A DNA stretch of 64,000 bases from Ignavibacteriota bacterium (GTDB taxonomy: Bacteria; Bacteroidota; Ignavibacteria; Tepidaquicellales; Tepidaquicellaceae): contig JAPLFJ010000026.1 of the NCBI GenBank assembly GCA_026390735.1, positions 62,001-126,000 on the forward strand, in the 5' to 3' direction. A program made the position numbers and the translations under genes. Positions 3,113 to 46,456 of the stretch are shown one piece after another (the first letter of the stretch is position 1; each line of letters opens with the position of its first letter). The notes below the pieces were generated by a model. The model was not told where the DNA came from. It searched no databases and was given only the letters and a program-made list of their open reading frames with translations.

Positions 3113-3670
3113 ATGATACTAATTATTTTACATAATTTGTTTGTCGGTATTTTATTGAGCGGCGATGTGCACGAGAAGCCATCGTTACTTTCTGTAAACC
3201 CGGGATTGATTATATGGACTATAGTGGTCTTTGTATTATTTCTTTTATTGTTAAAGAAGTTTGCATGGAAACCTATTATCGGTGCATTGAACAATCGCGA
3301 GAAAACTATTCAGGAAGCACTTGAAAATGCCGAAAAACAGAATAAAGAATCTGCGGAAACGTTTGAGAAGAATAAGAAGATAATTGCTGAGGCTCATGCT
3401 CAGTCGTCGAAAATTCTTAGTGATGCGAAAGAACTTGCAGTTAAACTTAAGGACGAAATCGTCAGTAAGGCAAACGAAGAATCGAATAAGAATATTGAAC
3501 GCGCAAAAGAGCAGATAGAATCAATGAAATCAACTGCCATAGAGCAGATGAGAGGTGATATAACAGATATAGCTCTGCAGGCTGCTGAAAAGATTTTGTC
3601 TAAAAATCTTAACAGGGATAGCCAGATAGAACTTATCGATGACTTTATGAAGAAAATACCGAAAAATTAA
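3113..3670 (+). CDS. atpF: F-type ATP synthase subunit b
   Basis: The peripheral stalk subunit: a 185-aa protein with one membrane helix (about residues 31-48) and a long charged coiled coil rich in Glu, Lys and Ala. The helix is followed by KKFAWKPIIGALNNRE, typical of b subunits. The C-terminus contacts delta/F1. The first 30 residues before the helix (SGDVHEKPSLLSVNPG) are short and periplasmic. ATG at 3113; the TAA shares its last A with the atpH ATG, suggesting coupled translation. Confidence 0.93.
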   Translation: MILIILHNLFVGILLSGDVHEKPSLLSVNPGLIIWTIVVFVLFLLLLKKFAWKPIIGALNNREKTIQEALENAEKQNKESAETFEKNKKIIAEAHAQSSKILSDAKELAVKLKDEIVSKANEESNKNIERAKEQIESMKSTAIEQMRGDITDIALQAAEKILSKNLNRDSQIELIDDFMKKIPKN

Positions 3671-19970: not shown

Positions 19971-19985
19971 TAATTTCTATAATCC

Positions 19986-20057
19986 TCAATATGTCATCCC
20001 TACGGGACTTAACTTATATTAATCCTTTTTGTTATTGTTATGTCGCTCCTACGGAGC
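19986..20057 (-). repeat. Two copies of the palindromic CCCGTAGGG repeat
   Basis: Between folP and metG are two hairpin repeats, best read on the minus strand: AGTCCCGTAGGGATGACAT (about 19990-20008) and AGCTCCGTAGGAGCGACAT (about 20041-20058). Both have the form stem-GTA-stem followed by GACATA. The second keeps pairing although two stem positions differ from the first. Four more copies lie at 46224-46407. Confidence 0.8.
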
Positions 20058-20101
20058 TTCTTTTATAATACTCTTCACTAAATTGTCTGTTTTTTATTCC
20101 A

Positions 20102-22087
20102 CTAACTTACGTCGGCTCCGTCTGCTATTTCACCGTCGACAGTTATCACTTTCAGTTTTCCGTCTATCTTTGCGGCAAGAAGCATTCCCTGTGATTCAAG
20201 TCCCATCAATTTTGCCGGTTTCAGGTTGTCAACTATTAAAACCGTTTTATTCAATATCTGTTCAGCTGAATAATGTTCGGCTATACCGGCTATAATTTGC
20301 TTTTCTTTGCTTCCGCATTTTACTTTCAGTTTCAGGAGTTTCTTGCTTTTTGGAACTGCTTCTGCATGAATCACTACTGCCGTTGCAAGTTTTACCTTCT
20401 TAAAATCATCAATCGTAATAAGATTTTCTTCTACTACAACCACTTCCTCTTCTTTAGGTGCAGCAAGTTCTATCTGCGGGAAAAGTATTTCGTTCTCGCC
20501 GAGTTCGGTATCTCCCTTTAAAACAAGATCGCCAATCTTATCCCAGCTAAAGTCAGAATTGTCTTTCCCGAGTACCTTCAGAATCTTTTCCGACGTAAAC
20601 GGAATCACAGGAGCAATTGCAATCGCGAGCGAATGTGCAATCTCAAGGCAGTCGTTTATAATTTCTCCGCACTTTGCCTCGTCAGTTTTTATTACTTTCC
20701 ACGGCTCACTGTCATTAAAGTATTTATTCGCCGCACGGGCTATGTTCATAGTTTCATTTAAAGCATCGCGGAATTTATAATTGTTGTAACAGTCTTCTAT
20801 AACTTTCTTCTGTGATTTTATGTAAGCAAATATTTCAGGCACTTCACCCGAAACCCTTGCAGGTATTTTGTTGTCAAACTTATTCTTTGCAAACACTACG
20901 GTACGGTTTATGAAGTTACCGAGTATTGCTGCAAGTTCATTGTTATTCTTTGACTGTAAATCTTCCCACGAGAAATCAGAATCTTTATTCTCGGGCATAT
21001 TCGATGCTACCGAATACCTTACAACATCAGGATTGAACGATTCCACAACATCCTTCACGAGTATTCCGTGACCTTTGCTCTTAGAAAGTTTCGCACCATC
21101 GAGATTTAAGAATTCGTTTGCAGGAACGTTCTCCGCAAGTACAAACCCGCCGTGTGCCATAAGCATTGCAGGGAATACAATCGCGTGAAAAATAATATTA
21201 TCTTTGCCAATAAAATGTACCATCCTTGTGTCTTCTTCGCACCAGTAATCTTTCCATTTCTCAGGCGTTCCTCTTTCTATAAATAATTCCTTCGTTGCAG
21301 AGATGTAACCAATCGGTGCTTCAAACCAAACATAAATCACTTTGCCTTCAGTATTCTTCACGGGCACTTTCACGCCCCAATCAAGGTCACGCGTAATGGC
21401 ACGGTCTTTTAAACCTGTCTTAAACCAGCCCTCGCAGTAATTCTTAACGTTCGGTTTCCAGTTAGTCTTTCCTTTAATCCACTCTTCCAGTTTTGGCTGA
21501 AACGCTTCCAGAGGAAAGAAGAAATTTATAGATTCTTTTACAACGGGAGTGTCACCCGAGATTTTAGACTTTGGATCCTTCAGTTCAAGAGGAGTAAGGT
21601 TAGACCCACACTTTTCGCACTGGTCGCCGCGTGCTTCTTCATATCCGCAGATAGGGCAGGTACCTTCCACAAACCTGTCAGCGAGGAATCTTTTATCTTT
21701 TTCTGAATAGAGCTGTTTCTCTGTTTTTTGAACAAGAAGGTTTTTATCAAAAAGGTTGAGGAAAAAATCCTGAGAAGTCTTGTGATGAATCTCGTTTGAA
21801 GTCCGTGAATAAATATCAAAAGAAATTCCAAGTTTAGCAAAAGCATCTTTATTCGCAAAGTGAAACCTGTCAATGATTTCTCTGGGAGTAACATTCTCTT
21901 TCATAGCGGAAATTTCTATAGCCGTGCCATGTTCATCCGAGCCGCAGACAAAAATAATCTCTTCGCTGCAAAGTCTTTTAAACCTTACAAAAATATCTGC
22001 CGGTAAATACGCACCTGCAATATGCCCGAGATGAATATATCCGTTGGCATAAGGTAATGCCGCTGTAACAAGTAATCTATTTTTCAT
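20102..22087 (-). CDS. metG: Methionyl-tRNA synthetase
   Basis: A 661-aa class I synthetase charging tRNA-Met. HIGH-type motif HLGH at 19-22, a zinc knuckle CPICGYEEARGDQCEKCG after about residue 143, and KLSKS at 333-337 (KMSKS motif). The C-terminus is a tRNA-binding/EMAP-like OB domain (DFKKVKLATAVVIHAEAVP onward), the dimerising form. I take the ATG at 22087; a TTG two codons upstream exists. It heads its own transcript, with a long AT-rich gap upstream. Confidence 0.97.
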   Translation of the reverse strand: MKNRLLVTAALPYANGYIHLGHIAGAYLPADIFVRFKRLCSEEIIFVCGSDEHGTAIEISAMKENVTPREIIDRFHFANKDAFAKLGISFDIYSRTSNEIHHKTSQDFFLNLFDKNLLVQKTEKQLYSEKDKRFLADRFVEGTCPICGYEEARGDQCEKCGSNLTPLELKDPKSKISGDTPVVKESINFFFPLEAFQPKLEEWIKGKTNWKPNVKNYCEGWFKTGLKDRAITRDLDWGVKVPVKNTEGKVIYVWFEAPIGYISATKELFIERGTPEKWKDYWCEEDTRMVHFIGKDNIIFHAIVFPAMLMAHGGFVLAENVPANEFLNLDGAKLSKSKGHGILVKDVVESFNPDVVRYSVASNMPENKDSDFSWEDLQSKNNNELAAILGNFINRTVVFAKNKFDNKIPARVSGEVPEIFAYIKSQKKVIEDCYNNYKFRDALNETMNIARAANKYFNDSEPWKVIKTDEAKCGEIINDCLEIAHSLAIAIAPVIPFTSEKILKVLGKDNSDFSWDKIGDLVLKGDTELGENEILFPQIELAAPKEEEVVVVEENLITIDDFKKVKLATAVVIHAEAVPKSKKLLKLKVKCGSKEKQIIAGIAEHYSAEQILNKTVLIVDNLKPAKLMGLESQGMLLAAKIDGKLKVITVDGEIADGADVS

Positions 22088-46160: not shown

Positions 46161-46179
46161 TTTAAGAAAATTTTAAATT

Positions 46180-46407
46180 GTAAAGTTTAAATTTCAAATT
46201 TACATTTTAAATTTCAAATTGTTAGTCCCGTAGGGACGAAATATCAATAGCTATAAAAGTTAATATAAATAAAGTCCCGTAGGGACGACATATTAGATTT
46301 ATTAAATTTACATTTTCAAATTTAAAATTGATAGAAATCCCGTAGGGATTTAATATCAGTAGCAAGTAAATGACAAGTTCTTCAATCCCGTAGGGATTGC
46401 ACATTAG
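46180..46407 (+). repeat. Four palindromic CCCGTAGGG repeats with AT-rich direct repeats
   Basis: The gap 46161-46456 holds four hairpin repeats starting near 46224, 46273, 46335 and 46383. Cores are GTCCCGTAGGGAC (twice) and ATCCCGTAGGGAT (twice), each followed by a conserved tail ending ATATTAG, ATATCAGTAG or ACATTAG. Ahead of them TTTAAATTTCAAATT occurs twice (from about 46183). Spacing is about 48-62 bp. Two related copies lie upstream of folP. Confidence 0.88.
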
Positions 46408-46456
46408 ACAAAAACATAAATTACATAAATAAATAATCTAAAAAGAAAGGTTCACA

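What the first reader, a model, noticed from the sequence alone, without database searches (positions are those of the whole stretch)
46180..46407. Palindromic repeat family with covarying stem bases
Six copies (four here, two at 19986-20057) share stem-GTA-stem cores and a tail ending CATAT/ACATTAG. Stem versions GTCCC/GGGAC, ATCCC/GGGAT and GCTCC/GGAGC keep base pairing, so the folded form is under selection. Both loci are intergenic. It may be a mobile small palindrome, a protein-binding site or an RNA processing signal.
Basis: seen in the sequence. Interest (0 to 1): 0.55.

Follow-up and report, generated by a model that had tools for sequence, protein, structure and literature searches.

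The report
Paired hairpin repeats flanking TnpA genes
The short palindromes are real, number about 94 in this genome, and look like mobile DNA hairpins that travel with a small transposase whose close relatives were described in print as having no such repeats.

Summary
All six window copies exist, are intergenic, and keep stem pairing through compensatory changes. The genome has about 94 copies in 41 clusters. They look like dispersed ends of a transposase element. The one Y1 (HUH tyrosine) transposase match without internal stops is flanked by these hairpins, and so are two decayed copies.

The protein has the signature of TnpAY1 subclass 1.2 (Corneloup 2018, PMC6006769), for which that paper's table says REP "no". 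Of 80 homologous loci, 74 had enough flank to test. 73 of the 74 carry such hairpins within 200 nt, 238 in all, against 10.3 ± 2.8 in shuffles.

The typical layout is two hairpins about 50 nt apart at an end, oriented inwards, with a GTAG-like tag 9 nt 3' of the outer hairpin. Canonical REPs carry GTAG directly 5' of a longer stem, so the published automatic search rule would miss most of these.

The window's 19996-20057 pair is absent at that junction in five relatives, so it was most likely gained.

I read this as a REP-like system of subclass 1.2 TnpA. Association, architecture and dispersal are shown. Cleavage and mobility by TnpA are inferred.

The parts
46225..46293 (+). Dimer 1: hairpins 46225-46237 and 46274-46286, start-to-start 49 nt; first copy tagged (tail GAAATATCAATAG, 46238-46250), second ends GACATAT without tag
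46337..46404 (+). Dimer 2: hairpins 46337-46349 and 46385-46397, start-to-start 48 nt; first copy tagged (GTAG 46359-46362), second ends TGCACAT without tag
19989..20057 (-). Dimer 3: hairpins 20057-20045 and 20008-19996, 49 nt apart, reading on the - strand; first copy has ATAA at the tag position, second ends GACATAT without tag
19973..20104 (.). Stretch of about 132-135 nt holding dimer 3, absent at the folP-metG junction of G004 and G010; no hairpin of this kind there in G001, G002, G003 either
46161..46456 (.). Intergenic region holding dimers 1 and 2; five relatives with the same two neighbour genes have no model hit there (G004 has one ATCCC-TTTA-GGGAT hairpin without tail or tag)

Best explanation
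The palindromes are a REP-like family: short single-strand DNA hairpins recognised by a Y1 HUH transposase of TnpAY1 subclass 1.2. The complete element is tnpA with, typically, a pair of hairpins at each end, about 50 nt apart within a pair and inverted between the two ends. The outer hairpin carries a GTAG-like tag 9 nt beyond its foot; the inner one carries it less often. The dispersed copies in this genome fall into 24 pairs (single ends), 8 longer runs and 20 single hairpins; some pairs face each other without the gene. Inferred: TnpA binds the hairpin on single-stranded DNA and cleaves just 3' of the ATAT tail, where terminal copies lose the tag. It then joins ends, so pairs are inserted elsewhere and arrays grow in units of 48-50 nt. 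Shown: association, architecture, copy number, covariation, and an insertion-like difference between species. Not shown: binding, cleavage, mobility.
For: PF01797 has 5 matches in the genome. One, C69, has no internal stop and is flanked by hairpins: five upstream, and downstream one perfect inverted copy, three by the model. Two decayed loci (C50 end, C28) have hairpins on both sides. Protein motifs DHLH, WQ, YIENQKEHH and 153 aa fit subclass 1.2. Homologues: 73 of 74 tested loci have at least one hairpin within 200 nt; 47 of 74 have them on both sides against 0.25 in shuffles; density 8.07/kb near and 0.63/kb beyond 1500 nt; spacing peaks at 49-52 nt. A 45-56-nt pair is present upstream in 40, downstream in 37 and on both sides in 21 of 74. 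GTAG exactly 9 nt after the fifth stem pair: 45 of 99 outer, 15 of 97 inner, 0 of 90 oppositely oriented hairpins. Both flanks share an exact five-base stem arm in 34 of 48 loci; permutation mean 8.6, maximum 16 in 2000 permutations. In the window's genome, non-terminal copies of runs are tagged in 38 of 42 and terminal ones in 6 of 32; same-strand neighbours lie 47-51 nt apart in 41 of 46 cases. The pair at folP-metG is missing in five relatives, and the repeat model finds nothing in 50 relatives' loci around the two window sites' genes. tnpA and repeat co-occur in 26 of 99 genomes, 14.6 expected, p = 1.8e-6, thresholds chosen afterwards, no correction for kinship.
Against: No experiment, and no polymorphism between strains of one species. 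26 of 74 loci show hairpins on one side only. One (L039), the closest homologue of all at 62%, has none, and looser settings found only one weak AT-rich hairpin near it. Only 21 of 74 show the full double-pair layout. The tag is only GTAG-like in the window's genome and missing in several copies. 12 of 99 genomes have the repeat model without a strong tnpA match and 12 the reverse. In 39 homologue genomes the tagged pattern reaches 3 times its reversed control in 14 but does not exceed it in 18. The inward/outward loop sets were chosen after seeing the loop counts. A distant plasmid homologue (Persicobacter, 35%) has other hairpins and I saw no tag at +9.
Confidence: 0.8

Rival explanations
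1. They are canonical REPs of a class 2 RAYT (TnpAREP), as in E. coli or Stenotrophomonas, merely not recognised as such.
For: Short intergenic palindromes, a GTAG motif, transposase flanked by inverted copies.
Against: No GTAG at the 5' foot: in 196 inward hairpins the nearest 5' GTAG starts 18 nt before the stem. Stems are about 5-7 bp with GTAG 3', against 7-20 bp with GT[AG]G 0-2 nt 5' in the published search rule. The protein has YIENQ, not YIxxNP, and scores 25.4 bits against a cut-off of 80 for the REP transposase model, but 62.5 against 55 for IS200. Four of the genome's five PF01797 matches are also found by the subclass 1.2 alignment at E <= 1e-20; the fifth is a decayed fragment.
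Confidence: 0.05
2. They are ends and internal deletion derivatives of an ordinary IS200/IS605 insertion sequence.
For: The curated model that fits is IS200/IS605 and the nearest solved structures are IS200/IS605 enzymes, with weak scores. Subterminal hairpins and a fixed distance to a presumed cleavage point resemble an IS right end.
Against: Hairpins are inverted between the two ends, whereas IS200/IS605 transposition is strand-specific (PMC8266576 passages; that both ends lie in the same sense is recalled). One intact and several decayed copies only; the published analysis says subclass 1.2 lacks IS properties.
Confidence: 0.1
3. They are RNA elements (terminators, mRNA stabilisers or leader hairpins) selected for RNA folding.
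For: Stem covariation with some G.U pairs; the nearest upstream hairpin often lies 20-60 nt before tnpA.
Against: No T run follows the six window hairpins. Clusters lie between co-directional (19), convergent (9) and divergent (8) ORFs of 36 by rough calls. Copies are inverted on the gene's 3' side. No Rfam family matches the repeats in the window or in 17 related loci at gathering scores.
Confidence: 0.03
4. Protein-binding sites (operator or chromosome-organising sites) unrelated to transposition, spread by recombination.
For: Regular 48-50 nt spacing and intergenic location.
Against: Tight linkage to subclass 1.2 tnpA in many genera and matched stems at both flanks.
Confidence: 0.02

Closest known systems
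REPtrons of class 2 TnpAREP/RAYT (E. coli, Stenotrophomonas; Nunvar 2010 PMC2817692, Corneloup 2018 PMC6006769, 2021 PMC8266576)
   Same: Short palindromes dispersed between genes, a single-gene Y1 transposase flanked by inverted copies, stem type matched at both flanks, a GTAG motif
   Different: GTAG-like tag 9 nt 3' of the hairpin instead of 0-2 nt 5'; stems about 5-7 bp; direct pairs about 50 nt apart are the common unit instead of inverted dimers; transposase is subclass 1.2
TnpAY1 subclass 1.2 (Corneloup 2018)
   Same: Protein size, WQ, Y---Q--HH signature, conserved C-terminal tail, low copy number, Bacteroidetes range
   Different: The paper lists no REP and generally no terminal secondary structure for it; here hairpins are found at 73 of 74 loci tested. 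Cyanobacterial members were not tested
IS200/IS605 insertion sequences (IS608, ISDra2)
   Same: Y1 HUH transposase, hairpins recognised as single-strand DNA (by analogy)
   Different: Ends inverted and often doubled; dispersed gene-less copies dominate
CGTC-tagged REPs (Di Nocera 2013 PMC3733652, passages read)
   Same: Reported from Bacteroidetes and Chlorobi
   Different: 8-9 bp stems, 4-5 nt loops, CGTC tag and no dedicated transposase
TnpAREP subclass 2.6 of Bacteroidetes (PMC6006769)
   Same: Same phylum, atypical REPs without a GT[AG]G foot
   Different: Class 2 protein (YIH[QN]NP, median 179 aa); repeats found there by manual inspection

Membership tests
TnpAY1 subclass 1.2 | DHuH, WQ and Y---Q--HH motifs in a protein of about 150 aa with conserved C-terminal tail | tested here: met
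   P0001 has DHLH (paper: DH[IV]H), WQ, YIENQKEHH, 153 aa; 25-row alignment
TnpAY1 subclass 1.2 | No associated REP (as stated in the paper's Table 1) | tested here: not met
   73 of 74 loci with hairpins within 200 nt; read as an omission of the published search rule
Canonical REP/REPtron (class 2 TnpAREP) | GT[AG]G 0-2 nt 5' of the hairpin foot | tested here: not met
   (GTAG only tested): nearest 5' GTAG starts 18 nt before the stem in 196 inward hairpins; GTAG at +9 on the 3' side
Canonical REP/REPtron (class 2 TnpAREP) | Class 2 protein with YIxxNP | tested here: not met
   YIENQ; NF047646 25.4 bits, cut-off 80
REP in the wide sense | Many dispersed intergenic copies of a short palindrome | tested here: met
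   94 copies, 41 clusters, 39 of 41 without an ORF of 90 aa or more across them
REP in the wide sense | Y1 transposase gene flanked by inverted copies | tested here: met
   three loci of the window's genome; hairpins on both sides in 47 of 74 homologous loci
REP in the wide sense | Transposase binds and cleaves the repeat as single-strand DNA | not testable with these tools
   needs purified protein
IS200/IS605 insertion sequence | Both end hairpins act on one strand, not inverted | tested here: not met
   loop and tag orientation is mostly inward at both ends
IS200/IS605 insertion sequence | IS200-type Y1 transposase | tested here: met
   NF033573 62.5 bits over cut-off 55; PF01797 90.2 bits

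The most novel reading that the evidence does not exclude
Subclass 1.2 TnpA, published as an IS200 relative without IS properties and without REPs, is the enzyme of a separate REP system found across Bacteroidota and related phyla. Its substrate would be a pair of hairpins about 50 nt apart, with the guide or cleavage tag on the 3' side of the hairpin, a mirror of canonical REPs, and single ends would spread without the gene.
Probability: 0.65. Interest if true: 0.68.

Novelty: new variant of a known kind. Interest (0 to 1): 0.6.

Why it matters
REPs are a long-known puzzle, and how they spread has been tested for few enzymes. Here an enzyme group said to have no REP gets a candidate substrate of defined anatomy with many natural variants, so a cleavage assay is simple to design. 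It also suggests that the published search rule, which demands a 5' GTAG and a longer stem, has missed a REP family in Bacteroidota. One such gene that I looked up is annotated simply as an IS200/IS605 transposase.

Tried and rejected
Rejected: Rfam RNA family (no match on the repeats at gathering scores). Terminator (no T run at the window copies, mixed gene context). Canonical RAYT. A 3-mismatch pattern search of the genome was uninformative beyond its exact hits: 228 matches against 223 for the control. The exact 13-base repeat was in 0 papers. Empty-site mapping at 46161-46456 gave no clean boundary because relatives hold unrelated sequence there. A TIR-bounded element of about 245 nt in genome G128 looked at first like the natural ends of the tnpA element; its ends were not found in that genome's tnpA locus L096, so I did not use it as evidence. 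DNA folding of the three window pairs gave z = -2.6, -4.6 and -1.5, so the third is not remarkable. No structure prediction was run.

Literature: searches. PMC6006769 was read in sections 12, 16, 17 and 18 and in passages; PMC3733652, PMC8266576, PMC2817692, PMC12306157 and PMC11194056 in passages only. PMC12306157 (RepRanger, 2025) tabulates REP counts for two Flavobacterium genomes and does not use the words RAYT or transposase; PMC11194056 reports RayT genes in Chryseobacterium without REP. Whether either concerns this family I could not tell. Bertels 2017 I know only as cited in PMC6006769; ISfinder could not be searched.

Rows dropped: one search left out 6 of 80 loci for short flanks (L047, L058, L060, L062, L107, L114). 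One search used 80 loci and 337 hairpins; 51 with other loops were counted neither inward nor outward. One search counted 88 of 94 hits (32-nt matches only). One search kept the best 80 of 483 relatives. One search covered 39 genomes of 40 named loci (one not held). One search used 94 of the 102 hits (E < 1); 5 of its 41 clusters lack an ORF on one side. One search compared 6 relatives' loci at PEPCK and 7 at folP-metG. Two of the seven (L248, L249) have the genes further apart and show no model hit. One search's 38 copies had been picked by pairing, so its 100% pairing is by construction.

Full report
Observation. A covariance model built from 38 genome copies, these six among them (A1, R1), finds exactly these six in the window. 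The exact pattern TCCCGTAGGGANNNNAYAT occurs 22 times in the 4.0-Mb genome and its reversed control 0 times. The model gives 102 hits at E up to 10; the 94 with E below 1 form 41 clusters. Of those, 39 are not overlapped by any ORF of 90 aa or more, and the other two are overlapped only by ORFs of about 95 aa. Gene context rests on plain ORFs, so it is rough: 19 co-directional, 9 convergent, 8 divergent, 5 without an ORF on one side.

Pairing. Of 88 ungapped model hits, 82 have five pairs and 6 have four. The third pair occurs as CG 64, AT 9, TA 5, GC 5 and 5 others; the fourth as CG 55, TA 30 and 3 others. Because the model rewards pairing, I also anchored on loop and tail alone within the fetched loci: 39 of 48 have five pairs, 6 four and 3 three. 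The background of 4880 GTA sites with poor tails has 1.1% with five. The shuffle control agrees, but its rows had been picked by pairing.

Anatomy. Same-strand neighbours lie 47-51 nt apart in 41 of 46 cases. The 94 copies fall into 24 runs of two, 7 of three, one of five and 20 singles. Within runs, TAG follows at fixed distance in 38 of 42 non-terminal copies but in 6 of 32 terminal ones (Fisher p = 2e-10); singles have it in 13 of 20. So the repeating unit seems to end just after ATAT, and the tag belongs to the stretch between hairpins. The window's three pairs follow this rule, except that the first copy at 20057 has ATAA.

Transposase. PF01797 has five matches in the genome; one, C69, has no internal stop (P0001, 153 aa). 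It stands between five hairpins upstream and inverted copies downstream (one perfect, three by the model). Decayed copies at C28 and at the end of C50 also have hairpins on both sides, of the ATCTC, TTCCC and ATCCC types. The fifth match, on C55, is a fragment with four stops. Outside these three loci, 70 dispersed copies are nearest to the C28 type in 32, the C69 type in 28 and the C50 type in 10 cases, some by small margins or ties. Window dimer 1 and the 20057 pair go with C69. Dimer 2 is mixed: first copy nearest the C50 type, second nearest C28.

Class of the protein. Motifs DHLH, WQ and YIENQKEHH match the published subclass 1.2 signature. NCBIfam calls it IS200 (62.5 bits, cut-off 55) and not REP transposase (25.4, cut-off 80). 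The nearest solved structures by sequence are the transposases 2xm3/2xma/2xo6, with the ISHp608 enzyme further down; all scores are weak. Corneloup 2018 states that subclass 1.2 has no REP and generally no terminal IS200 structure. Their automatic rule demanded GTAG or GTGG 0-2 nt 5' of a stem of 7 bp or more, which most of these repeats do not satisfy.

Homologues. A scan of one-per-species genomes gave 483 relatives; the best 80 were kept, 50-62% identical, from Ignavibacteria, Bacteroidales, Flavobacterium, Chitinophagaceae, Cytophagales, Saprospiraceae, one each of Chlorobium, Gracilimonas and Opitutales, and others, by record title. In the 74 with adequate flanks, 238 hairpins lie within 200 nt. 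Dinucleotide shuffles give 10.25 ± 2.8 (20 shuffles). The density beyond 1500 nt is 0.63/kb against 8.07/kb near. 73 loci have at least one, 47 have both sides, 26 one side, one none. The one without, L039, is the closest homologue; looser settings found only one weak AT-rich hairpin there. A 45-56-nt pair is present upstream in 40, downstream in 37 and on both sides in 21. Stems at the two flanks share an exact five-base arm in 34 of 48 loci; permuted loci give 8.6 on average and 16 at most. So the two flanks evolve together.

The tag. Among hairpins with inward-type loops, GTAG starts exactly 9 nt after the fifth stem pair in 45 of 99 outer and 15 of 97 inner copies. It does so in 0 of 90 hairpins with outward-type loops. 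RTAR in that zone: 87 of 99, 45 of 97, 7 of 90. The loop sets were defined after seeing loop counts but without use of the tag. A plasmid-borne homologue in Bernardetia, annotated as an IS200/IS605 transposase, shows hairpins with ATATTTGTAG tails on both sides by eye, though the script's rule caught only one of them. A more distant one from Persicobacter (35% identical) has other hairpins and I saw no tag at +9.

Spread. In 39 homologue genomes the tagged pattern has 548 matches and its reversed control 155. It reaches 3 times the control in 14 genomes (for example 109 against 7, 89 against 6, 61 against 3, 48 against 4, 42 against 2) and does not exceed it in 18. The pattern covers only GTA and GTNA loops with an exact GTAG. 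Among 99 related genomes, the window's own included, 26 have both a strong tnpA match (E at most 1e-50, chosen afterwards) and the window-type repeat model. 12 have only tnpA, 12 only the repeat, 49 neither (kinship not corrected).

Gain in the window. At folP-metG the relatives G004, G001, G003, G002 and G010 have the two genes close together without hairpins. In G010 the junction reads AAATCATTAACTTAC, and the window has about 132 nt between the two halves of it. The simplest reading is insertion in this lineage. At the other site five relatives with the same neighbour genes lack these repeats but hold other sequence; G004 has one ATCCC-TTTA-GGGAT hairpin there without tail or tag. Over all 50 relatives' loci fetched around the two sites' genes, the repeat model has no hit at E up to 1; gene order was checked only in the loci.

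Mechanism. By analogy with IS200/IS605 and TnpAREP (PMC8266576 passages), a Y1 enzyme would bind the hairpin on single-strand DNA and cut at a fixed distance. The loss of the tag in terminal copies marks the likely cut just 3' of ATAT. Joining of such ends would give tandem arrays with a period of 48-50 nt, and insertion of one end gives a pair. Two facing pairs without the gene (C9:18769-18929, C56:146257-146425) look like gene-less elements. All of this paragraph is inference.

Verdict. A plain-looking repeat turns out to be the candidate substrate of an enzyme group that was described as lacking one. By protein and tag position it is not a canonical REP system; in what it does it most likely works like one. 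I found no report of it in searches, which cover open-access papers only.

Noticed in passing
L271-L280, L281, L286, L289 (genome G128, homologue of L096): An element of about 245 nt with 19-bp terminal inverted repeats ATGCGAATCAAGGGTTGAA carries one hairpin pair at each end; 50 matches to the terminus (up to 2 mismatches, control 0) in the genome, often flanked by TA. It looks like a TIR-type miniature transposon that holds the hairpin pairs.
   Followed up: partly
window 46169-46329: Dimer 1 sits between AT-rich inverted repeats (26 nt, 85% complementary), possibly an outer shell of another small element.
   Followed up: no
L031 4016-4249: A decayed fragment of a Y1 transposase (2 TAG, 2 TAA); the nearest model hit on that contig is about 13 kb away.
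   Followed up: no
L218 about 3270-3500: In relative G004 the region upstream of the PEP carboxykinase gene holds a different palindromic insert (CACAGAG... inverted arms around ATCCCTTTAGGGAT).
   Followed up: no
L220 about 3320-3440: In relative G001 the same region has three hairpins CACTC-TTTA-GAGTG about 30 nt apart, another repeat family.
   Followed up: no
L101 959-1039: Flavo-1 RNA (Rfam RF01705) about 2 kb from the tnpA gene of Flavobacterium frigoris.
   Followed up: no
L071 3001-3453: The Sphingobacterium homologue has an internal stop codon, so decayed copies are not confined to the window's genome.
   Followed up: no
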